From Deltaproteobacteria bacterium (GTDB lineage Bacteria > Desulfobacterota > BSN033 > UBA1163): a stretch of 14,636 nucleotides of DNA. The translations under genes and the position numbers were made by a program. Positions 1 through 14,385 of this stretch are shown here, in pieces. The stretch's first letter is position 1; the number at the start of each line of letters is the position of its first letter. The stretch is taken from contig VGSD01000014.1 in the NCBI GenBank assembly GCA_016875155.1, positions 1-14,636 of the forward strand, read 5' to 3'. The notes below the pieces were generated by a model. The model was not told the DNA's origin, did no database searches, and worked only from the letters and a program-made list of their open reading frames with translations.

Positions 1-52
1 CAAATATCAAATGTTTTAAATAATAAAGTTTAGGACATTTGAATTTTGAAAA

Positions 53-93
53 TTCGGATTTGTTTCGGATTTCGATATTCGGATTTCGGATTT
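53..93. repeat. TTCGGATTT short tandem/interspersed repeat upstream of waaA
   Basis: The 9-mer TTCGGATTT occurs four times, at 53-61, 64-72, 78-86 and 85-93, directly in front of waaA. The inverse motif (CCGAAATCCGAAAT) reappears just before lpxK at 1430-1443. No convincing promoter or Shine-Dalgarno sequence is visible in the first 103 bases, so the transcript probably starts upstream of the window. The stretch looks like a low-complexity intergenic repeat family rather than a regulatory site. Confidence 0.6.
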
Positions 94-2600: not shown

Positions 2601-2650
2601 TAACCCCCCTCTATTCCCCCCTTAGTCTAAGGGGGGATGAAGGGGGGTTA
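2601..2650. repeat. C6/G6 hairpin repeat between lpxK and leuA
   Basis: A 50-bp inverted repeat runs from TAACCCCCCT to AGGGGGGTTA. It has two 10-bp matched blocks per arm (TAACCCCCCT and CCCCCCTTAG, each with its complement), a 5/4 internal mismatch and almost no loop. It could act as a transcription barrier between the lipid A genes and the leucine genes. No T-tract follows on the plus strand, so I regard it as a dispersed palindromic repeat rather than a canonical terminator. Confidence 0.7.
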
Positions 2651-4244: not shown

Positions 4245-4254
4245 AAGTCAAGAA

Positions 4255-4326
4255 AAGGTTTAGGTTAAGGTTTAGGTTGAGGGTAAACACTTAATTTTTC
4301 TCAACCTTAACCTCAGCCTCAACCTT
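4255..4326. repeat. 27-bp imperfect inverted repeat between leuA and leuC
   Basis: Arm 4255-4281 (AAGGTTTAGG... to GGTTGAG) pairs with 4300-4326 (CTCAACC... to AACCTT) at 23 of 27 positions by hand count, around an 18-base AT-rich loop. It is built from GGTTTAGGTTAAGG-like units, so it may be both a tandem and an inverted repeat. The hairpin sits inside the leu operon and could attenuate or stabilise the transcript. Confidence 0.65.
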
Positions 4327-4353
4327 CTTTCTTTTTTCAAAAATAGGTGGGAT

Positions 4354-5647: not shown

Positions 5648-5669
5648 GCCTGCCTGCCGGTAGGCAGGG
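5648..5669. repeat. GC-rich palindrome CCTGCCT-N6-AGGCAGG, copy 1 (leuC-leuD gap)
   Basis: The palindrome has 7-bp perfect arms CCTGCCT and AGGCAGG around GCCGGT. An identical 22-bp stretch occurs at 13499-13520. This copy lies 8 bases past the leuC stop codon. Confidence 0.8.
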
Positions 5670-6783: not shown

Positions 6784-7128
6784 CTATTCCTCGATTTCCT
6801 TTAGCATCCGTTGAATAACTGGTTTTATTTCAGGCAGTCTTTGTTTGATAACTTCCCAAACGATCGAATAATCAATGCCAAAATAGAAATGGGCAATCTT
6901 ATCTCTCATTCCTGCCATGTCAGTCCAAGGCAATTCTTTATACCTCTGTCTAATCTGTTTGGGAATATTCTTGGCGGCTTCGCCGATTATCTCAAGCTTT
7001 CTTACCACCGCACTTTTCGTCTTATCATCTTCAATAAATTCCTTAAAGTTCATACTCCCAATGAATTCATCGATCTTTTCCATGCAGTCTAATATGTCTT
7101 TCACGAAAAGCTTATGATTTCGCTTCAT
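6784..7128 (-). CDS. hepT: HepT-like HEPN (DUF86) toxin
   Basis: This 114-residue all-alpha HEPN-domain protein carries the RNase signature R-x4-H-x-Y as R75, H80 and Y82 (RDKIAHFY). In characterised HepT/MntA pairs this protein is an RNase toxin, and the Tyr of the motif is AMPylated by the partner nucleotidyltransferase. The sequence PWTDMAGMRDKIAH is typical of the DUF86 family. ATG 7128 overlaps the mntA stop by ATGA, implying translational coupling, and AGGTGG (7141-7136) lies 7 bases upstream. The motif is intact, so the toxin is probably functional. The pair sits on the strand opposite the surrounding biosynthetic genes, consistent with later acquisition. Confidence 0.88.
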   Translation of the reverse strand: MKRNHKLFVKDILDCMEKIDEFIGSMNFKEFIEDDKTKSAVVRKLEIIGEAAKNIPKQIRQRYKELPWTDMAGMRDKIAHFYFGIDYSIVWEVIKQRLPEIKPVIQRMLKEIEE

Positions 7129-7418
7129 ATATAAACCACCTCGCCTAAAATTGTATTTTTTAATTCAGGTCGAATGGCTTTTTTACTTACGAGGTCAACC
7201 TTCTTCTTCAAAAGCCTTGAGAGATATCTTTCGAGATTGATGAATTTGAGCAGGTCTGGGACTTTCTCAAAGTCCACAAGGATGTCTATATCGCTTCGTT
7301 TCTTCTCCTCGCCTCGTACAATTGAGCCAAAAACCCCGATTTCTATAACCGAATACTTTTGATACAGATCTTCCTTATTAGCCTTTAATATTTCGTTGAT
7401 ACCTTTTAGAGAATTCAT
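7125..7418 (-). CDS. mntA: MntA-like minimal nucleotidyltransferase antitoxin
   Basis: This 97-residue protein of the MNT/DNA polymerase beta-like nucleotidyltransferase family shows GS-x10-DxD at G31-S32 and D43-I-D45. These are the catalytic metal-binding Asp residues. Members paired with HEPN toxins act as antitoxins, by AMPylation in the studied systems. The start is supported by AAAGGA (7431-7426) 7 bases upstream. It is the first gene of the pair; hepT overlaps its stop by 4 bases. An 18-bp near-palindrome at 7483-7500, about 65 bases upstream of the start, is a candidate operator. Confidence 0.88.
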   Translation of the reverse strand: MNSLKGINEILKANKEDLYQKYSVIEIGVFGSIVRGEEKKRSDIDILVDFEKVPDLLKFINLERYLSRLLKKKVDLVSKKAIRPELKNTILGEVVYI

Positions 7419-8033: not shown

Positions 8034-8109
8034 GTAACAGTCTTTCATGATTGGGTTGTCACTTCCCATTCCTACGGAAGAGGCTTAAAAAAAATACTCT
8101 ATAGGACTG

Positions 8110-8218
8110 GGTTAAGGTTACGAAGCCCGTTTCGTCATTCGGTTACGGTTACGTTTGAAAGAATTAAATACGAAAGACCTAGTCTTTTATAGACGATACG
8201 GGCATCGTTACCGTTGCC
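8110..8218 (-). mobile_element. MITE-like 109-bp repeat element, copy A (uninterrupted)
   Basis: Read on the minus strand, this matches element B (13409-13537) at about 84 of 109 positions by ungapped hand alignment, once a 20-bp insertion in B is removed. The ends are most conserved; the middle has drifted. The two termini are imperfect inverted repeats of about 27 bp (GGTTAAGGTTACGAAGCCCG at one end, CGGGCATCGTTACCG at the other), so the whole unit could fold as a long hairpin. There is no coding capacity. It lies just upstream of the asd ribosome binding site, so it would be in the asd leader. Confidence 0.72.
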
Positions 8219-8259
8219 ATTAGACGAAACCTTTGTTTTACGAGTCATCGGAGGTGCTT

Positions 8260-9282
8260 ATGAAAAAGGCAAAATACAATGTGGTGGTTGCAGGGGCAAC
8301 GGGTGCCGTAGGAAACGAGATGATCTCCATTCTCGAACAGAGAAATTTCCCGGTTGACCGGTTAAAACTTCTTGCCTCTACTCGGGGTGCAGGCACCAGA
8401 ATGGAGTTCAAGGGAAAGGAGTATACGGTTGAGGTGATGGATGAAAACTCCTTTGCCGGAATGGATATCGGACTCTTCTCTCCGGGGGGATCGGTCAGTC
8501 AGAAGTTTGCACCCATTGCAGGAAGGGCGGGCTGTGTGGTCATCGATAACACCAGCGCCTTCCGGATGGACCCCGAGGTTCCTTTAGTCGTTCCAGAGGT
8601 AAATGCCTATGCAGTCGCCGGCTACCCTAAGAAGAATATCATCGCCAATCCCAACTGTTCGACCATCCAGATGGTCGTGGCGTTGAAGCCTATCCATGAT
8701 GTGGCGCGGATCAAACGGGTCGTTGTCTCCACCTATCAGTCAGTCTCAGGCACTGGAAAGCGGGCGATTAAGGAACTGGAGAACCAGGTCCTTGCCATCT
8801 ACAACCAGCAAGAACTCAAACGGGAGGTCTATCCTCATCAGATTGCCTTCAACTGCCTTCCCCATATCGATGTCTTCCTCGAGAACGGGTACACCAAAGA
8901 AGAGATGAAAATGGTCAATGAGACGAAGAAGATCATGGAGGATGATTCGATTCGTGTCACTGCCACTACAGTGAGGGTTCCTGTTTTTTACAGTCATTCG
9001 GAATCGGTCAACATCGAAACCGAAAAGAAACTGACACCGGATCAGGTGAGAGAAATCCTTTCCAAAGCTCCAGGGGTCGTGGTTCTGGACAATCCCAAGA
9101 AGTCCGAATACCCCCTGGCCATCCACGCCGCAGGAAAGGACGAGACTTTTGTGGGGAGGATTCGTGAGGATGAGTCAATTCCTAATGGGATCAATATGTG
9201 GGTTGTTTCTGATAACATCCGAAAGGGCGCAGCCCTCAATGCCGTCCAGATCGCAGAAGTTCTGATCCAGAAGTATCTGTAA
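8260..9282 (+). CDS. asd: Aspartate-semialdehyde dehydrogenase
   Basis: This 340-residue enzyme reduces beta-aspartyl phosphate to aspartate semialdehyde with NADPH, feeding lysine/diaminopimelate, threonine and methionine synthesis. The N-terminal NADP-binding loop is GATGAVG (residues 12-18). The catalytic Cys is C133 in NPNCSTIQM, and the general-base His is H246 in RVPVFYSHSESV. The length and motifs fit the bacterial Gram-positive/deltaproteobacterial type. ATG 8260 is fixed by GGAGG at 8250-8254; an in-frame TTG at 8233 would add nine residues and is rejected. In related genomes asd often follows leuB; here it follows the toxin-antitoxin islet and a repeat element, so it probably has its own promoter. 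Confidence 0.95.
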   Translation: MKKAKYNVVVAGATGAVGNEMISILEQRNFPVDRLKLLASTRGAGTRMEFKGKEYTVEVMDENSFAGMDIGLFSPGGSVSQKFAPIAGRAGCVVIDNTSAFRMDPEVPLVVPEVNAYAVAGYPKKNIIANPNCSTIQMVVALKPIHDVARIKRVVVSTYQSVSGTGKRAIKELENQVLAIYNQQELKREVYPHQIAFNCLPHIDVFLENGYTKEEMKMVNETKKIMEDDSIRVTATTVRVPVFYSHSESVNIETEKKLTPDQVREILSKAPGVVVLDNPKKSEYPLAIHAAGKDETFVGRIREDESIPNGINMWVVSDNIRKGAALNAVQIAEVLIQKYL

Positions 9283-9298
9283 AGGCAAGAAACGTAAT

Positions 9299-9358
9299 GT
9301 AGCGTCGGCATTAATTGCTGACGCAAATTTAATCGCCCCCAGTAAATGGGGGCGCTAC
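9299..9358. repeat. Branched palindromic repeat between asd and livK
   Basis: Two adjacent hairpins, GCGTCGGC/GCTGACGC (9302-9324, 7 of 8 pairs) and GCCCCC/GGGGGC (9335-9353), are enclosed by GTAG (9299-9302) and CTAC (9355-9358). This gives a three-way-junction-like fold. No T-tract follows, so it reads as a repeat element; it may still impede read-through from asd into livK. Confidence 0.65.
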
Positions 9359-9376
9359 TACATAGGAGGATAAACA

Positions 9377-10558
9377 ATGAAAAAAATATTCTGGCTCATT
9401 TTGACGGCCTTTCTTTTCATCTCTTGGATCTCACTGGGCCATGCCGCCAAAACCCCTTACAAGATTGGGGTCAATCTTGAGCTGACCGGGCCGTGGGCAG
9501 AGGTTACCAAGACGTTGAAGAATGCCATGGTCCTGGAATCGGAGAGAATCAATAAAATGGGAGGAATCGACGGCCGTCCCCTTGAGTTGATCTTCGAGGA
9601 TAACGGCTTCGATGTGAGCAGAGCCGCCGCCAACATGACCAAATTTACAAAGGACAAGGACATCCTCCTGGTGGTCGGTCCTTTTGAGGATAATCTTCAA
9701 GCCACCACCCGTGCCATTGCCGAAAGGGAGAAGATCACCAATATCATCATCTGTCCCTCCAATCCCATGGTCCGGGACTTAAAGCAACAGTGGGCTTTCA
9801 ACATCGCCCAGAGCGATATCATCGTTTCTGAGAAACTGGTTGATCTTGCTCTGGCCAGAAAATATAAGAAGGTTCTTGTTTTTCATGGCGCCTGGCCTCT
9901 GGCTCAAAGTTTAGCCGAAAATTTTAGACGCTTCGGCGAAGCAAAGGGGATGAAGGTGATCATCTCTCCTGAAACTCATAAACCCATAGATATTGATATG
10001 ACCCCTCAACTGACCAAGATCAAACCCATCATTCAGAAAGAGAAAGTGGATGCCTTCTATGCATGCACCGGCGGCCCTCCGGGCCCCCTCATCACAAAGA
10101 ACTTAAGGGCCCTCGGAGTCAAGACGCCTGTCCTTGGAACCCATGCCTTTGGATTTGGCTTCATTATCGCCCTGGGTGGAGAGGCCATGGAGGGAGTGGA
10201 GTTCCCCTCAGCCAAACCCGTGGTCTTCGACCAGCTCGATGAAAACGATCCTGTTAAACCCGTAAATATTGACTTTGATAAACGCTGGACTCAGCGTTAT
10301 GGGACACCTTCCGACCAGATTGCTGGCTACGGCTATGACACCATCGGCCTAATCAGTGACGCCCTGAAACGTGTTAAGGAAAAGGTAACACGTTTCAGTC
10401 TGAGAGATGCCTTAGAAAATACCAACGAATTTAAAGGCACCCATGGAATTTATCAGTTCAGCCCCGCAGAGCATGATGGTTTGAAGAAAAAGGATCTCGT
10501 CTTTGTTCGGATCGAAGGAGGAAAATTCAAAAGGATTAAATTCCCCGGAATTGAATAA
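9377..10558 (+). CDS. livK: Branched-chain amino acid ABC transporter, periplasmic substrate-binding protein (LivK-like)
   Basis: This 393-residue protein is a type I periplasmic binding protein of the Peripla_BP_6 family. It begins with a signal peptide: KK, a hydrophobic core at about 5-20, and GHAA as the likely cleavage site at residues 21-24. There is no lipobox Cys, so it should be a soluble periplasmic protein. The mature start KIGVNLELTGPWAEVTK is typical of the family's first strand and ligand-binding loop. AGGAGG (9364-9369) gives a strong ribosome binding site. It heads a livKHMGF set and is followed by an intrinsic terminator, which fits high production of the binding protein. The ligand may be leucine, isoleucine or valine, but this family also binds amides, urea and aromatic acids. 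Confidence 0.9.
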   Translation: MKKIFWLILTAFLFISWISLGHAAKTPYKIGVNLELTGPWAEVTKTLKNAMVLESERINKMGGIDGRPLELIFEDNGFDVSRAAANMTKFTKDKDILLVVGPFEDNLQATTRAIAEREKITNIIICPSNPMVRDLKQQWAFNIAQSDIIVSEKLVDLALARKYKKVLVFHGAWPLAQSLAENFRRFGEAKGMKVIISPETHKPIDIDMTPQLTKIKPIIQKEKVDAFYACTGGPPGPLITKNLRALGVKTPVLGTHAFGFGFIIALGGEAMEGVEFPSAKPVVFDQLDENDPVKPVNIDFDKRWTQRYGTPSDQIAGYGYDTIGLISDALKRVKEKVTRFSLRDALENTNEFKGTHGIYQFSPAEHDGLKKKDLVFVRIEGGKFKRIKFPGIE

Positions 10559-10590
10559 AGGTTGAAGAAAGAAGACAATAAGGATAAATT

Positions 10591-10630
10591 AAAAGGGTGG
10601 ATGGCTTCATGGCTCCACCCTTTTTGTTTT
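10591..10630 (+). terminator. Intrinsic terminator after livK
   Basis: A perfect 11-bp stem, AAAAGGGTGGA (10591-10601) with TCCACCCTTTT (10614-10624), encloses a 12-base loop and runs into TTTTTGTTTT. It stands 33 bases past the livK stop and would let the binding protein be made in excess of the membrane and ATPase subunits by partial read-through. Confidence 0.85.
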
Positions 10631-10642
10631 GCCAGACGATCA

Positions 10643-10663
10643 GACGATAAGACAACTCGACTA
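10643..10663. repeat. GACGAT...CTCGACTA dispersed repeat, copy 1
   Basis: This 21-base segment matches 14365-14385 at 19 of 21 positions by hand. It lies between the livK terminator and livH; no function is apparent. Confidence 0.5.
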
Positions 10664-10674
10664 AAGACTAAATC

Positions 10675-11565
10675 ATGGACCTCTTAGCACCCCTTCCTCA
10701 ACTCCTTATTTCCGGAATCACCTTTGGAGCAATCTATGCCCTGGTTGGACTAGGGTTTGTTACGATTGCAAGGGCATCGCAGATCATCAACTTTGCCCAG
10801 GGTGAGTTTGTGATGTTGGGAGGAATGATGACCTTCTTCTTTCTTAGAGAAGTCCATCTTCCCTATTCTCTGGCCGCACTTTTCGCCATTCTGGTTGTCA
10901 TCCTCATCGGTTTTTTTCTCCACCTTCTCGTCATCTATCCTTTGCGAAAGGCTTCACTTCCGATCCTCCTCATGGCAACACTCGGTGCCTCTCTCTTTCT
11001 GAGCAGTACGAGCGCACTCCTCTTTGGCACACTTCCAAAGGCTCTGCCTCCCTTCGCAGGCAAGGACCTTTTGGAATTAGGGAAAGTCTCTGTCTCTTCC
11101 CAGAGCCTCTATGTCCTGGGAGCCACTTTTATGGTTCTTCTCTTCCTATATCTTCTTTCCTACCGCACCCTGCTGGGGAAAGCGATGGAGGCAAGTTCAA
11201 CCGATCCCCTTGGCGCTGATCTCTCAGGGATTTCGAAAAACCTGATGATCTTTCTTGCCTTTGGTGTGAGTGCGGGGATTGGTTCAATCGCAGGAATCTT
11301 CATCACACCCATCTTCTATGTGAGTTATCATTCGGGAACTCTGATCGGACTGAAGGGATTTATCGCTGCAGTCTTAGGCGGCTGGGGAAAACATAGCGGC
11401 GCCATCCTCGGAGGGCTTGTCCTCGGAGTGGTGGAGTCTTTGAGTATCGCTTTCATCCCCTCGGGTTATAAGGATGCAATCGCTTTTATCGTTCTCCTGC
11501 TCATTCTCTATTTTAGACCGAAAGGAATTTTGGGTTCACCCTTTATGGATAGCCGACGATGGTAG
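10675..11565 (+). CDS. livH: Branched-chain amino acid ABC transporter permease LivH
   Basis: This 296-residue polytopic inner-membrane protein with about eight hydrophobic segments belongs to the LivH half of the BPD_transp_2 family. Family features seen are the N-terminal GITFGAIYALVGLGFVTI (about 14-31) followed by INFAQGEFVMLGG (about 38-50), and a C-terminal GSIAGIF...GLKGFIAAVLGGWG block (about 203-240) that forms the coupling region. It ends with LYFRPKGILG, the usual terminus. No good Shine-Dalgarno sequence precedes ATG 10675. It overlaps livM by 7 bases, indicating translational coupling. Confidence 0.92.
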   Translation: MDLLAPLPQLLISGITFGAIYALVGLGFVTIARASQIINFAQGEFVMLGGMMTFFFLREVHLPYSLAALFAILVVILIGFFLHLLVIYPLRKASLPILLMATLGASLFLSSTSALLFGTLPKALPPFAGKDLLELGKVSVSSQSLYVLGATFMVLLFLYLLSYRTLLGKAMEASSTDPLGADLSGISKNLMIFLAFGVSAGIGSIAGIFITPIFYVSYHSGTLIGLKGFIAAVLGGWGKHSGAILGGLVLGVVESLSIAFIPSGYKDAIAFIVLLLILYFRPKGILGSPFMDSRRW

Positions 11566-12641
11566 AACAATTTCAAAAAGAGTTTAGAAAAAGGGACCTT
11601 TTTTACTCAATAGCCCTGTGGTTCCTCTCTCTGATTATTCCTGACCCACAGCTCCATTACAGGAAGGAATATGGCTTCAGGAAGAGGGATCTCTTCTACC
11701 TGATGACCATTCTATGGCTTCCTTTGATCTGGTCGGATCCCCATTTTCACCATCTCATGGTCCTGGCGGGAATTCATGGAATTCTAGCCCTGGGGCTAAC
11801 CCTCTTTCTTGGTTATGCCGGACAGATCTCACTCGGTCATGCTGCTTTCTTCGGAATTGGCTCCTATACCACAGCCATTCTCACCACCCGTTACGGCGTC
11901 CCTTCCTTCTTTGCCTTATGGGCATCGGCCTTAACCGCTTCCCTCGTTGCCTTTCTCATTGGAAGGCCCATCCTGAAATTGAAAGGATATTTCCTGGCTC
12001 TCGCCACGCTGGGATTTGGGGAAATCTTTCTCGTTATGGTGAGAGAGTCTTCAAGCCTTACCGGAGGTGTGATCGGAATCTTCGACATCCCTTTCTTCTC
12101 TTTTGCAGGATTTATCTTTGACACCTTTCTCAAGCAATATTACCTCATCTGGGGAGTCTTGGTGGGGTTGGTTCTCTTCTCTAAAAATCTGATCCGATCG
12201 AAAATGGGACGGGCTTTTTTGGCTGTGGCCTCAAGCGAGGATGGTGCATCCGCCGTTGGAATCGATGTGGCCCGGATCAAACTCGGGGTCTTTATCATTG
12301 GAGCGGCCTTTGCCGGATCGGCAGGAAGTCTCTTTGCTTCTGTGATGTCCACGGCCAATCCAGAGACTTTCAGCCTCAACCTCTCTGTCCTCATCGTCAT
12401 GATGGTCATTCTCGGAGGAATGGGAAACCTCTATGGCCCTATTGCAGGTGCTATCTTTCTCACCTTTCTGATCGATGGACTCAGCCGATATCAGGAGTAT
12501 AGCCTTCCCGTTTATGGGTTGATCCTGATCCTGCTACTCATTTTTTTCCCGGATGGGATCGGAACACGTCTGAGAGTCAGATTGATCTATCTGATCAGTT
12601 ACCTGGGTAGAAAGAGGCGAAGGGAAAAGGTGGAACTCTGA
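11559..12641 (+). CDS. livM: Branched-chain amino acid ABC transporter permease LivM, with duplicated N-terminus
   Basis: This 360-residue permease pairs with LivH. The core has the family motifs GILALGLTLFLGYAGQISLGHAAFFGIGSYTTAIL (about 73-107), and GGMGNLYGPIAGA and a final FFPDGI-G segment near the C-terminus. The first 70 residues are odd: FRKRDLFY plus a hydrophobic stretch and DPxxH occurs twice, at residues 9-34 and 40-65, a 31-residue tandem duplication. The second copy occupies the normal LivM N-terminal position. The start lies within the end of livH, and livG begins on the last base of the stop codon (TGATG), so livHMG is tightly coupled. The extra copy may add a membrane helix. 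Confidence 0.92.
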   Translation: MVEQFQKEFRKRDLFYSIALWFLSLIIPDPQLHYRKEYGFRKRDLFYLMTILWLPLIWSDPHFHHLMVLAGIHGILALGLTLFLGYAGQISLGHAAFFGIGSYTTAILTTRYGVPSFFALWASALTASLVAFLIGRPILKLKGYFLALATLGFGEIFLVMVRESSSLTGGVIGIFDIPFFSFAGFIFDTFLKQYYLIWGVLVGLVLFSKNLIRSKMGRAFLAVASSEDGASAVGIDVARIKLGVFIIGAAFAGSAGSLFASVMSTANPETFSLNLSVLIVMMVILGGMGNLYGPIAGAIFLTFLIDGLSRYQEYSLPVYGLILILLLIFFPDGIGTRLRVRLIYLISYLGRKRRREKVEL

Positions 12642-13396
12642 TGCTTCTCAGCGTGGAAGAGATTGTGAAGAATTATGATGGCGTTAGGGCATTGAACCGG
12701 ATCTCCCTCCAGGTTCGAAAGGGAACAGTGAAGGGACTGATGGGCCCCAATGGCGCGGGGAAGTCCACCCTCTTCCACCTCATCAGTGGAATGGAGAAGC
12801 CCGACTCCGGAAGAATCTGTTTTAAGGAGAAAGAGATTTCAGGACTGCCGACTCATGAGATCTCACAACGGGGTGTGGGAAGAACATTTCAGACGCTTCA
12901 GGTCTTCGGAAATATGACGGTCGTCGAAAATGTTCTGACTGGAATGCACATGAGAATAAAAGGAGGGCTTCTTTCCTCAGGCCTCTGGTTTCCTTGGATC
13001 AGAACAAGTGAAGAGGTGGCCATGAAAGAGGCTAAAGAGATCCTCGAACAACTCGGCCTCTTCGGACGGTGGAAATGGTTTGCTTCCCAGCTCTCCTATG
13101 GCGAACAGAAGCAGCTGGAGATCGCCCGCGCCCTTGCTGCAAAGCCAGACCTTCTCCTTCTCGATGAACCTGTAGCAGGTTTGACCTATCCCGAGGCAAA
13201 GCAACTGGCTGTAAACCTATCCCGTCTGAGAGAGACTGGTCTCACCCTCTTCCTGATTGAGCACCATATGGGAATGGTGATGGAGATTGCGGATGAAGTG
13301 GCTGTGCTCAATAACGGTGAACTTCTCGCTGAAGGACCACCGGATGTTGTGAAAAAAGACCCCGGAGTGATTGAAGCCTATATGCTTAAAAAGTAA
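12641..13396 (+). CDS. livG: Branched-chain amino acid ABC transporter ATP-binding protein LivG
   Basis: This 251-residue ABC ATPase energises the LivHM permease from the cytoplasmic side. Walker A is GPNGAGKST at 35-43, the signature is LSYGEQ at 151-156, Walker B is LLLLDEP at 171-177, and the switch His is H208 in LIEHHM. The LSYG form of the signature and the VAGLTYPE region after Walker B are LivG traits. AAGGTGG (12626-12632) precedes the ATG, which overlaps the livM stop by one base. All catalytic residues are intact. livF lies 160 bases downstream rather than adjacent, because a repeat element separates them. Confidence 0.94.
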   Translation: MLLSVEEIVKNYDGVRALNRISLQVRKGTVKGLMGPNGAGKSTLFHLISGMEKPDSGRICFKEKEISGLPTHEISQRGVGRTFQTLQVFGNMTVVENVLTGMHMRIKGGLLSSGLWFPWIRTSEEVAMKEAKEILEQLGLFGRWKWFASQLSYGEQKQLEIARALAAKPDLLLLDEPVAGLTYPEAKQLAVNLSRLRETGLTLFLIEHHMGMVMEIADEVAVLNNGELLAEGPPDVVKKDPGVIEAYMLKK

Positions 13397-13408
13397 GGAG
13401 CATTAAAA

Positions 13409-13537
13409 GGTTACGGTAAAGATGCCCGTATCGTTATTTAAAGGTTACGTTTATCGTTTGCTAATTCTTTTTACATAACCGTTACCGAATGACGAAACGC
13501 CTGCCTGCCGGTAGGCAGGGGCTTCGTAACCGTAACC
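13409..13537 (+). mobile_element. MITE-like repeat element, copy B (interrupted by a 20-bp palindrome)
   Basis: This copy starts with GGTTACGG (13409-13416) and ends with its exact complement CCGTAACC (13530-13537). The inverted similarity extends imperfectly to about 26 bp (GGTTACGGTAAAGATGCCCG against the complement of the other end). Without the 20-bp insertion it is 109 bp, the same as copy A. It occupies the livG-livF gap and has no coding capacity. Confidence 0.72.
13499..13520. repeat. GC-rich palindrome CCTGCCT-N6-AGGCAGG, copy 2, nested in element B
   Basis: It is identical over 22 bases to 5648-5669. It splits GAAACG from GGCTTCG within element B; in copy A those two parts are contiguous (GAAACGGGCTTCG on the minus strand), so the inserted unit is exactly 20 bp. 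Confidence 0.82.
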
Positions 13538-14330: not shown

Positions 14331-14364
14331 TAAGGGTGAGGGGGGAATGACGACAAGACTATAT

Positions 14365-14385
14365 GACGATACGACTACTCGACTA
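14365..14385. repeat. GACGAT...CTCGACTA dispersed repeat, copy 2
   Basis: This segment matches the one at 10643-10663 at 19 of 21 positions by hand count. It is in the convergent gap after livF. Confidence 0.5.

What the first reader, a model, noticed from the sequence alone, without database searches (positions are those of the whole stretch)
8110..13537. Two copies of a 109-bp MITE-like element, one empty and one carrying an exact 20-bp palindrome
Read in opposite orientations, 8110-8218 and 13409-13537 align without gaps over 109 positions (about 84 identities by hand) once 20 bases are removed from the second. Those 20 bases are a GC-rich palindrome placed precisely between GAAACG and GGCTTCG, which are contiguous in copy A. 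The termini are imperfect inverted repeats and conserved, while the centre has drifted, as expected of a structure-selected or transposase-recognised element. The palindrome appears able to move as its own unit into another repeat, with no visible target duplication.
Basis: seen in the sequence. Interest (0 to 1): 0.72.

Follow-up and report, generated by a model that had tools for sequence, protein, structure and literature searches.

The report
Tiny palindrome that jumps into repeats
A 20-base DNA palindrome, copied exactly to many places in a group of uncultured bacteria, has inserted itself at one precise spot inside a larger repeated element, which suggests that very small hairpins can spread through genomes as their own mobile units by a mechanism still unknown.

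Summary
In detail: 8110-8218 and 13409-13537, read in opposite orientations, match at 84 of 109 positions once 20 bases (13500-13519) are removed. The 20-mer ("P1") is a near-palindrome, not an exact one. Both parts are real repeat families. The larger element has dozens of copies in relatives and is about 200 bp long at copy A. P1 occurs 49 times exactly in one relative and in 14 of 17 genomes of its family. At the orthologous livG-livF element the arm holds P1 in the window and G002, a different 24-bp palindrome ("P2") in G001, and nothing in G007, G011 and G013. P1 sits in 27 context clusters, mostly in one orientation (G before and after), with no target duplication at the host arm. P2 has matching 4-bp flanks at 27 of 38 sites. 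So P1 most likely moves independently of its host element. The enzyme is unknown: none of 28 Y1/RAYT-type hits has these repeats nearby. Nearest known kinds: REPs and cyanobacterial small dispersed repeats. New variant of a known kind.

The parts
8110..8218 (+).
8043..8242 (+). Likely full extent of element copy A (200 bp), placed by comparison with the G007 locus that lacks it
8039..8042 (+). AGTC, left member of a 4-bp direct repeat flanking copy A (possible target duplication; one case only)
8243..8246 (+). AGTC, right member of the 4-bp direct repeat flanking copy A
13409..13537 (-). Copy B of the element, between livG and livF, left arm filled with P1
13500..13519 (+). P1 (CCTGCCTGCCGGTAGGCAGG) inserted between GAAACG and GGCTTCG in copy B
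5649..5668 (+). Second exact P1 copy, outside the element, between leuC and leuD; within 2 edits no P1 occurs anywhere in loci L001 and L010, and in L002 only the livG-livF one

Best explanation
The window holds two tiers of non-autonomous mobile repeats. The host tier is an intergenic, imperfectly palindromic, apparently non-coding element of about 200 bp, MITE-like. The guest tier is P1, a 20-bp hairpin-forming sequence that is copied in trans and inserted cleanly (at the host arm no target duplication, or at most 1 bp) and, in most contexts, in one orientation at a G^G step (often ACG^G), frequently inside other palindromic repeats. In copy B the guest sits in the left arm of the host. Shown: recurrence of P1 at the same nucleotide in many host copies and in other contexts, the orientation bias, absence of duplication at the host arm, orthologous empty and alternatively filled sites. 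Inferred: that these are separate insertions and that an enzyme acting in trans recognises the hairpin. The best fit to oriented, duplication-free insertion next to a short motif is a single-strand (Y1/HUH-type) transposase; I hold that step at about 0.35. The 24-bp palindrome P2, which fills the same arm in a relative, is mostly flanked by a 4-bp duplication and so probably uses a different, staggered-cut integration.
For: P1 counts: 49 exact in G001, 16 in G003, 1 in G002, reversed control 0; 14 of 17 genomes of the family. Orthologous livG-livF locus: P1 in the window and G002, P2 in G001, intact arm empty in G007, G011, G013, diverged arm without insert in G006, G008, G009. Of 63 element copies read, the left junction is empty in 46, P1 in 10, P1 with a nested insert in 3, unclassified in 4. 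Fill is scattered on the copy tree: 11 changes versus 11.9 for 200 label shuffles, minimum 7. 18 host-arm P1 sites have 11 distinct inner octamers and 11 distinct outer decamers next to the junction. 73 oriented sites in 27 flank clusters, one representative each: base before P1 is G in 20 of 27, base after is G in 21 of 27 and C in 1, so insertion is oriented. 41 of 47 exact P1 in 40 fetched G001 stretches lie outside mechanical ORFs of 100 aa or more, which cover 84% of those bases (2 of the 49 sites were not in these stretches). P2: matching flanks of 4 bp or more at 27 of 38 sites, the word differing with the site (CGGG, CAGG, CGAG, one CTTCG).
Against: No P1, P2, P3 or arm was found within about 1.5 kb (less where contigs end) of any of 28 Y1-transposase hits in G001-G003, unlike RAYT/REP pairs. 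P1 strand shows no clear link to GC skew (29 of 47, p=0.14) or gene direction (20 of 30, p=0.10), as a lagging-strand ssDNA mechanism might show. The G^G rule is not universal: 7 of 27 contexts lack the G before P1 and 6 lack the G after; in 8 viral contigs the base before is G in 8 but the base after is T in 7; in 8 exact sites of another phylum sample G precedes in 5 and follows in 6. The copy tree and the livF/livG tree are weakly resolved (3 of 56 and 2 of 10 inner branches starred). All 18 host-arm P1 sites have one orientation, so partial spread by recombination between host copies cannot be excluded. P1 was in the left arm in 13 copies and at the equivalent right-arm site in none of 63, which is not explained.
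Confidence: 0.78

Rival explanations
1. P1 entered one host copy once, and filled arms then spread by homologous recombination (gene conversion) among the many host copies.
For: All 18 host-arm P1 sites share one orientation and one position. Host arms are almost invariant, so recombination would be easy. P1 changes on the copy tree are about as many as for random labels, which fits frequent exchange as well as frequent insertion.
Against: P1 also sits in 26 other flank clusters, though two of these (L094, L174) are still inside host copies. In 18 host-arm sites the inner octamer starting 7 bases from the junction has 11 versions and the outer decamer starting 6 bases away has 11, so tracts would have to be very short. 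P2 occupies the same arm in G001.
Confidence: 0.2
2. P1 is not mobile but a useful hairpin (terminator, RNA stability or protein-binding site) kept or re-created by selection.
For: It is mostly intergenic (41 of 47) and very highly conserved in sequence.
Against: Precise presence or absence at the same nucleotide in otherwise matching orthologous and paralogous sites; nesting inside itself (L094); by eye no T-run follows it regularly (listing); the same asymmetric 20-mer recurs in 4 of 198 genomes of another phylum sample.
Confidence: 0.06
3. Hairpin-driven replication errors (template switching at stalled forks) copy the palindrome from one hairpin to another without any dedicated enzyme.
For: Targets are somewhat hairpin-prone: joined flanks have mean folding z -1.03 in 27 contexts versus -0.19 in 396 control positions, p=0.006. 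P1 nests in palindromes including itself. Little more than a G on each side is shared.
Against: The G^G orientation bias and the constant 20-bp ends over 27 contexts suggest recognition of ends and target. The hairpin bias is modest: z <= -1.5 in 7 of 27 contexts against 10.6% of controls.
Confidence: 0.18

Closest known systems
Small dispersed repeats (SDR) of filamentous cyanobacteria (Elhai et al. 2008, Genome Research; recalled, paper not held; the name SDR is cited in PMC3116915, passage seen)
   Same: As recalled: 20-odd-bp mobile repeats that insert precisely, without target duplication, also into other repeats; mechanism unknown.
   Different: Other phylum; G^G orientation bias; orthologous filled, empty and alternatively filled sites within one host element; a companion palindrome with a 4-bp duplication. 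Sequence relation to SDRs was not tested.
REP / REPIN repeats moved by RAYT transposases (PMC3116915, passages only; PMC3733652, abstract, passages and section 7)
   Same: 20-40 bp palindromes, many copies, intergenic. PMC3733652 section 7 reports some REP families inserted inside other palindromes.
   Different: No RAYT-type hit has them nearby (0 of 28); no unpaired GTAG tag (GTAG lies in the stem of P1); no close doublets of exact P1 in G001. Empty target palindromes are common here, whereas PMC3733652 did not find them in A. variabilis or H. neapolitanus (but hundreds in T. roseum).
ERIC / MITE-type imperfect palindromes (recalled for ERIC; MITEs reviewed in PMC10969869, search listing only)
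   Same: The host element: imperfect palindrome of 100-200 bp, multi-copy, apparently non-coding. Internal site-specific insertions are also known in ERIC (recalled).
   Different: No Rfam family reached its gathering score in the window; sequence was not compared with ERIC; termini and duplication only partly defined.
Rickettsia palindromic elements and CGTC-tagged REPs (PMC3733652, abstract and passages)
   Same: Palindromic units that insert into varied contexts and lack a known transposase.
   Different: No CGTC tag beside P1 (base -4 is A 8, T 8, C 8, G 3 of 27 contexts); P1 is much shorter than most RPEs (recalled).

Membership tests
MITE (host element) | Short, apparently non-coding, multi-copy | tested here: met
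   44, 7 and 65 matches (fragments and both arms included; 40 of 107, 9 of 9 and 40 of 58 candidates scored) in G001, G002, G003
MITE (host element) | Terminal inverted repeats | tested here: met
   Imperfect arms: 14 consensus pairs in 41 empty copies
MITE (host element) | Empty orthologous site showing mobility | tested here: met
   Upstream of asd, 15 of 17 genomes readable: a similar element only in G008 (L310); G007 gives a clean empty site; no match to A within up to 700 bp (179 to 437 bp in three) in the other 13
MITE (host element) | Fixed-length target duplication | tested here: inconclusive
   AGTC 4 bp at copy A; in 36 copies with tentatively placed ends, 6-bp matches in 4 (AGCAAT, AACAAT, AGGCAA, TACCTT), shorter or none in the rest
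MITE (host element) | Parent insertion sequence with the same ends | not tested
   No autonomous relative was searched for
GTAG-type REP / RAYT system (P1) | 20-40 bp palindrome in many intergenic copies | tested here: met
   49 exact in G001; 41 of 47 outside ORFs
GTAG-type REP / RAYT system (P1) | Unpaired GTAG tag at one end | tested here: not met
   GTAG is inside the stem; flanks of the 27 contexts show no GTAG consensus
GTAG-type REP / RAYT system (P1) | Copies beside a RAYT gene | tested here: not met
   0 of 28 Y1_Tnp hits in G001-G003, about 1.5 kb flanks
GTAG-type REP / RAYT system (P1) | Inverted doublets (REPINs) | tested here: not met
   Among the 49 exact P1 of G001, all listed, the nearest two start 1,130 bases apart; nested P1-in-P1 forms exist
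CGTC-type REP (P1) | CGTC tag at one end | tested here: not met
   Position -4 not conserved
Cyanobacterial SDR (P1) | About 20-27 bp, precise insertion without duplication, also into other repeats (definition recalled) | tested here: met
Cyanobacterial SDR (P1) | Sequence homology to SDR families | not tested
   SDR sequences were not at hand (paper not held)

The most novel reading that the evidence does not exclude
These genomes host a guild of hairpins of 20 to 44 bp that are themselves complete transposable units, among the smallest with defined ends. P1 inserts with a strong orientation bias at G^G without duplication and P2 inserts with a 4-bp duplication, both favouring other mobile palindromes as landing sites, so that insertions nest in insertions. 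Neither is moved by a RAYT-type neighbour. At least one works through an enzyme or process not yet described for such short DNA.
Probability: 0.3. Interest if true: 0.78.

Novelty: new variant of a known kind. Interest (0 to 1): 0.6.

Why it matters
How 20-bp palindromes spread through bacterial genomes is a long-open question for REPs, SDRs and Rickettsia palindromic elements. Here one junction in one host element is seen empty, filled with P1 and filled with P2 in related genomes, so ends, orientation and duplication can be read directly. It also gives defined substrates (host arm as target, P1 as donor) for a test of mobility. The contrast between P1 (no duplication at the host arm) and P2 (mostly a 4-bp duplication) suggests that more than one enzyme moves such minimal hairpins.

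Tried and rejected
RNA gene or riboswitch: no Rfam family reached its gathering score; three sub-threshold matches, taken as chance. RNA-level selection on the host arms: no compensatory change in 41 copies, so not supported, though nearly invariant arms are uninformative. RAYT partner: 28 Y1_Tnp hits in three genomes read with about 1.5 kb flanks where contigs allow, none with these repeats. Lagging-strand bias from GC skew and gene direction: not significant. I first took P3 (CCGCCCTCGGTCGGGACCGGGG) for a third independent palindrome. All 19 sites read (fetched loci only, up to 3 mismatches) have it inside P1 or a recognisable P1 variant, so it is better seen as the inner part of a 44-bp long form of P1. 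A first hairpin-target test (11 or more pairs across the junction in 41% of 54 sites against 16% of 1252 controls, p=0.005) did not control for base composition or paralogy; repeated per context with dinucleotide shuffles, the effect is modest. A claim that P1 is confined to one family was dropped: exact P1 is in 10 of 297 genomes sampled from the phylum, two of them outside the family, in 4 of 198 of another phylum sample, one of which (G310) was its chosen centre, and in 8 viral contigs. A claim that orientation is invariable was dropped on recheck. Literature: searches; no paper in that open-access library holds the P1 letters (five spellings; the one hit is to a 13-base piece in an unrelated paper).
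Full report
What was checked. The window carries lipid A, leucine-biosynthesis and branched-chain amino-acid transport genes (Pfam). Its closest records are metagenome-assembled: L001 (Thermodesulfobacteriota bacterium), L002 (uncultured bacterium) and L010 (Deltaproteobacteria bacterium). No whole genome is held for the window itself, so relatives were used. The 20-mer, which I call P1, has one G.T pair among ten and so is a near-palindrome. A second exact P1 lies at 5649-5668.

The host element. A search with copy A finds 44 matches in G001 (genome of L001), 7 in G002 (L002) and 65 in G003 (L010); these include fragments and both arms, and only 40 of 107 and 40 of 58 first-look candidates were scored in G001 and G003, so copy numbers are approximate. 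I read 63 copies from the window, L001 and fetched loci; matches under 60 bases, and copies whose central 50 bases repeated an earlier one, were dropped, among them the L001 copy at 189-285. At copy A the orthologous site in G007 is empty, which places the element at about 8043-8242, flanked by AGTC on both sides. Of 15 genomes with a matching asd gene, only G008 has a match to A upstream of it, sharing the right end; the rest have none within 700 bp or as far as the contig allowed. At other copies the flanking matches vary in length, so a fixed target duplication is not established. The arms pair into 14 consensus base pairs in 41 empty copies, with no compensatory change.

Filled and empty junctions among paralogs. 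Of the 63 copies, the left-arm junction GAAGCC|CGTTTCG is empty in 46, holds P1 in 10, holds P1 with a nested insert in 3, and was not classified in 4. The right arm is empty in 56, holds P2 in 6, and has P1 at another spot in 1. One of the 4 unclassified is the L001 copy whose left arm holds P2. On a tree of 59 copies built without the inserts, P1 presence needs 11 changes for 13 filled copies; shuffled labels need 11.9 on average, 7 at least (200 shuffles). The tree is weak (3 of 56 inner branches starred), so this shows scatter, not an exact number of events. Over all fetched loci, 18 host-arm P1 sites have 11 different inner octamers and 11 different outer decamers around the same junction.

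Filled and empty junctions among orthologs. The livG-livF spacer could be read in 14 of 17 family genomes plus the window. Copy B's orthologs have P1 in the window and G002 (a variant P1, element shortened), P2 in G001, no insert in a well-kept arm in G007, G011 and G013, and a diverged arm without insert in G006, G008 and G009. Six genomes (G003, G012, G014, G015, G016, G017) show no recognisable element in the spacer. On a livG+livF tree the P1 state needs 2 changes and the three states 3, counted on 8 rows (G006 was not yet recognised and was left out), with poor resolution (2 of 10 inner branches starred).

P1 elsewhere. Exact P1: 49 in G001, 16 in G003, 1 in G002, and present in 14 of 17 family genomes; the backwards-read control is 0 throughout. 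In 73 fetched sites whose orientation can be told (sites with symmetric centres dropped, up to 2 mismatches), 27 flank clusters were formed, one representative counted each. The base before P1 is G in 20 of 27, the one before that C in 15, then A in 15; the base after P1 is G in 21 of 27 and C in 1. If P1 entered in either orientation at random, the two flanks would be reverse complements of each other; they are not. Contexts include CTCTCCCC/GGGGAGAG hairpins, CCCCTCACC/GGTGAGGGG, AAATCCCCC-type repeats and P1 itself. A few sites have direct repeats beside P1 (for example L126, L175 and L185), which may be duplications or older tandem repeats; I could not tell. Joined flanks fold somewhat better than nearby control positions (mean z -1.03 against -0.19, p=0.006; z <= -1.5 in 7 of 27 contexts against 10.6% of 396 controls), so a hairpin preference is suggested, not proven. 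In 40 fetched G001 stretches, 41 of 47 exact P1 lie outside mechanical ORFs of 100 aa or more, which cover 84% of the bases; strand relative to GC skew (29 of 47, p=0.14) and to codirectional neighbours (20 of 30, p=0.10) is not significant.

Companion palindromes. P2 (CCCTGAACCTAGCATGGTACAGGG and variants) is in 11 of 17 family genomes at up to 2 mismatches. At 38 sites read, 27 have identical flanking words of 4 bp or more: mostly CGGG, then CAGG (6), CGAG (4) and one CTTCG. Of the other 11, seven differ by one base in the four and four differ more. The word follows the target (CGAG in arms that read CGAG, CGGG in arms that read CGGG), and empty arms hold a single CGGG, so I take this as a 4-bp target duplication. 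For CAGG the case is weaker, since P1, into which several of these went, itself contains CAGGCAGG. P3 is in 11 of 17 genomes, but in all 19 sites read it lies inside P1 or a P1 variant, giving a 44-bp long form, some of which carry a further P1 inside.

Range. Exact P1 is in 10 of 297 genomes drawn from the phylum, 8 of them in the family, in 4 of 198 genomes drawn from the phylum of G310, the genome of a Nitrospirae record and the chosen centre, in 0 of 5 other Deltaproteobacteria or Syntrophales genomes at up to 1 mismatch (G305-G309), and in 8 IMG/VR contigs. In the viral contigs the base before is G in 8 of 8 but the base after is T in 7; in 8 exact sites of the Nitrospirae sample G precedes in 5 and follows in 6, and two sit at the centre of CCCCGCCCCA/TGGGGCGGGG. 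Repeated exact copies in another phylum suggest horizontal spread; this was not followed further.

Mechanism. Shown: P1 is dispersed as a 20-bp unit with constant ends, separately from the host in most contexts, with an orientation bias and no duplication at the host arm. Inferred: an enzyme acting in trans. Insertion without duplication, in one orientation, beside a short motif is how IS200/IS605 single-strand transposases work (recalled), and Y1_Tnp genes are present (13, 5 and 10 hits in G001, G002, G003), but none of the 28 has P1, P2, P3 or host arms nearby and no significant strand bias was found. IS110-type recombinases also insert without duplication (recalled; not tested). P2's 4-bp duplication points to a staggered cut, so two routes are likely.

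Relation to known systems. REP/REPIN repeats share size and setting but are defined by a GTAG tag and a RAYT neighbour (PMC3116915 passages; PMC3733652 abstract, passages and section 7); both were tested and not met. Section 7 reports REPs inserted within palindromes in three bacteria, with empty targets not found in two of them, so palindromes as landing sites are not new, while orthologous empty and alternatively filled sites at one junction go further. Cyanobacterial SDRs (recalled) behave most alike; homology was not tested. I therefore rate this a new variant of a known kind, of real interest because the mechanism is an open question and the junction makes it testable.

Noticed in passing
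window 6784-7418 (-): HepT-like ribonuclease and MNT-type nucleotidyltransferase pair, a likely HEPN/MNT toxin-antitoxin module, between leuD and asd (Pfam).
   Followed up: no
window 2601-2650: TAACCCCCC...GGGGGGTTA hairpin; by eye it resembles the AAATCCCCC/TAAAGGGGGG repeat that hosts P1 in G001 and G003 loci (L118, L123, L130, L131, L196).
   Followed up: partly
window 48-90, 1415-1457, 4252-4331, 10634-10663, 14348-14385: Intergenic stretches built from drifting short words (TTCGGATTTCGG, GGTTTAGGTTAAGG, GACGATAAGACGACTCGACTA); similar spacers appear in some relatives' intergenic regions and may be decayed repeats.
   Followed up: no
L214 (G013), livG-livF spacer: The orthologous host element carries a further insert of roughly 220 bp bounded by inverted CCTAAATTGAGCGATT ends, possibly another MITE.
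   Followed up: no
host copies, left versus right arm: P1 was found at the ACG^GGC junction of the left arm in 13 of 63 copies but at the equivalent right-arm site in none, while P2 is in the right arm in 6; the rule behind this is unknown.
   Followed up: partly
L323, L325, L327-L332 (Nitrospirae sample) and L300-L307 (viral contigs): Exact P1 outside the family, preceded by G in 5 of 8 and 8 of 8 sites, hinting at horizontal spread of a 20-bp unit.
   Followed up: partly
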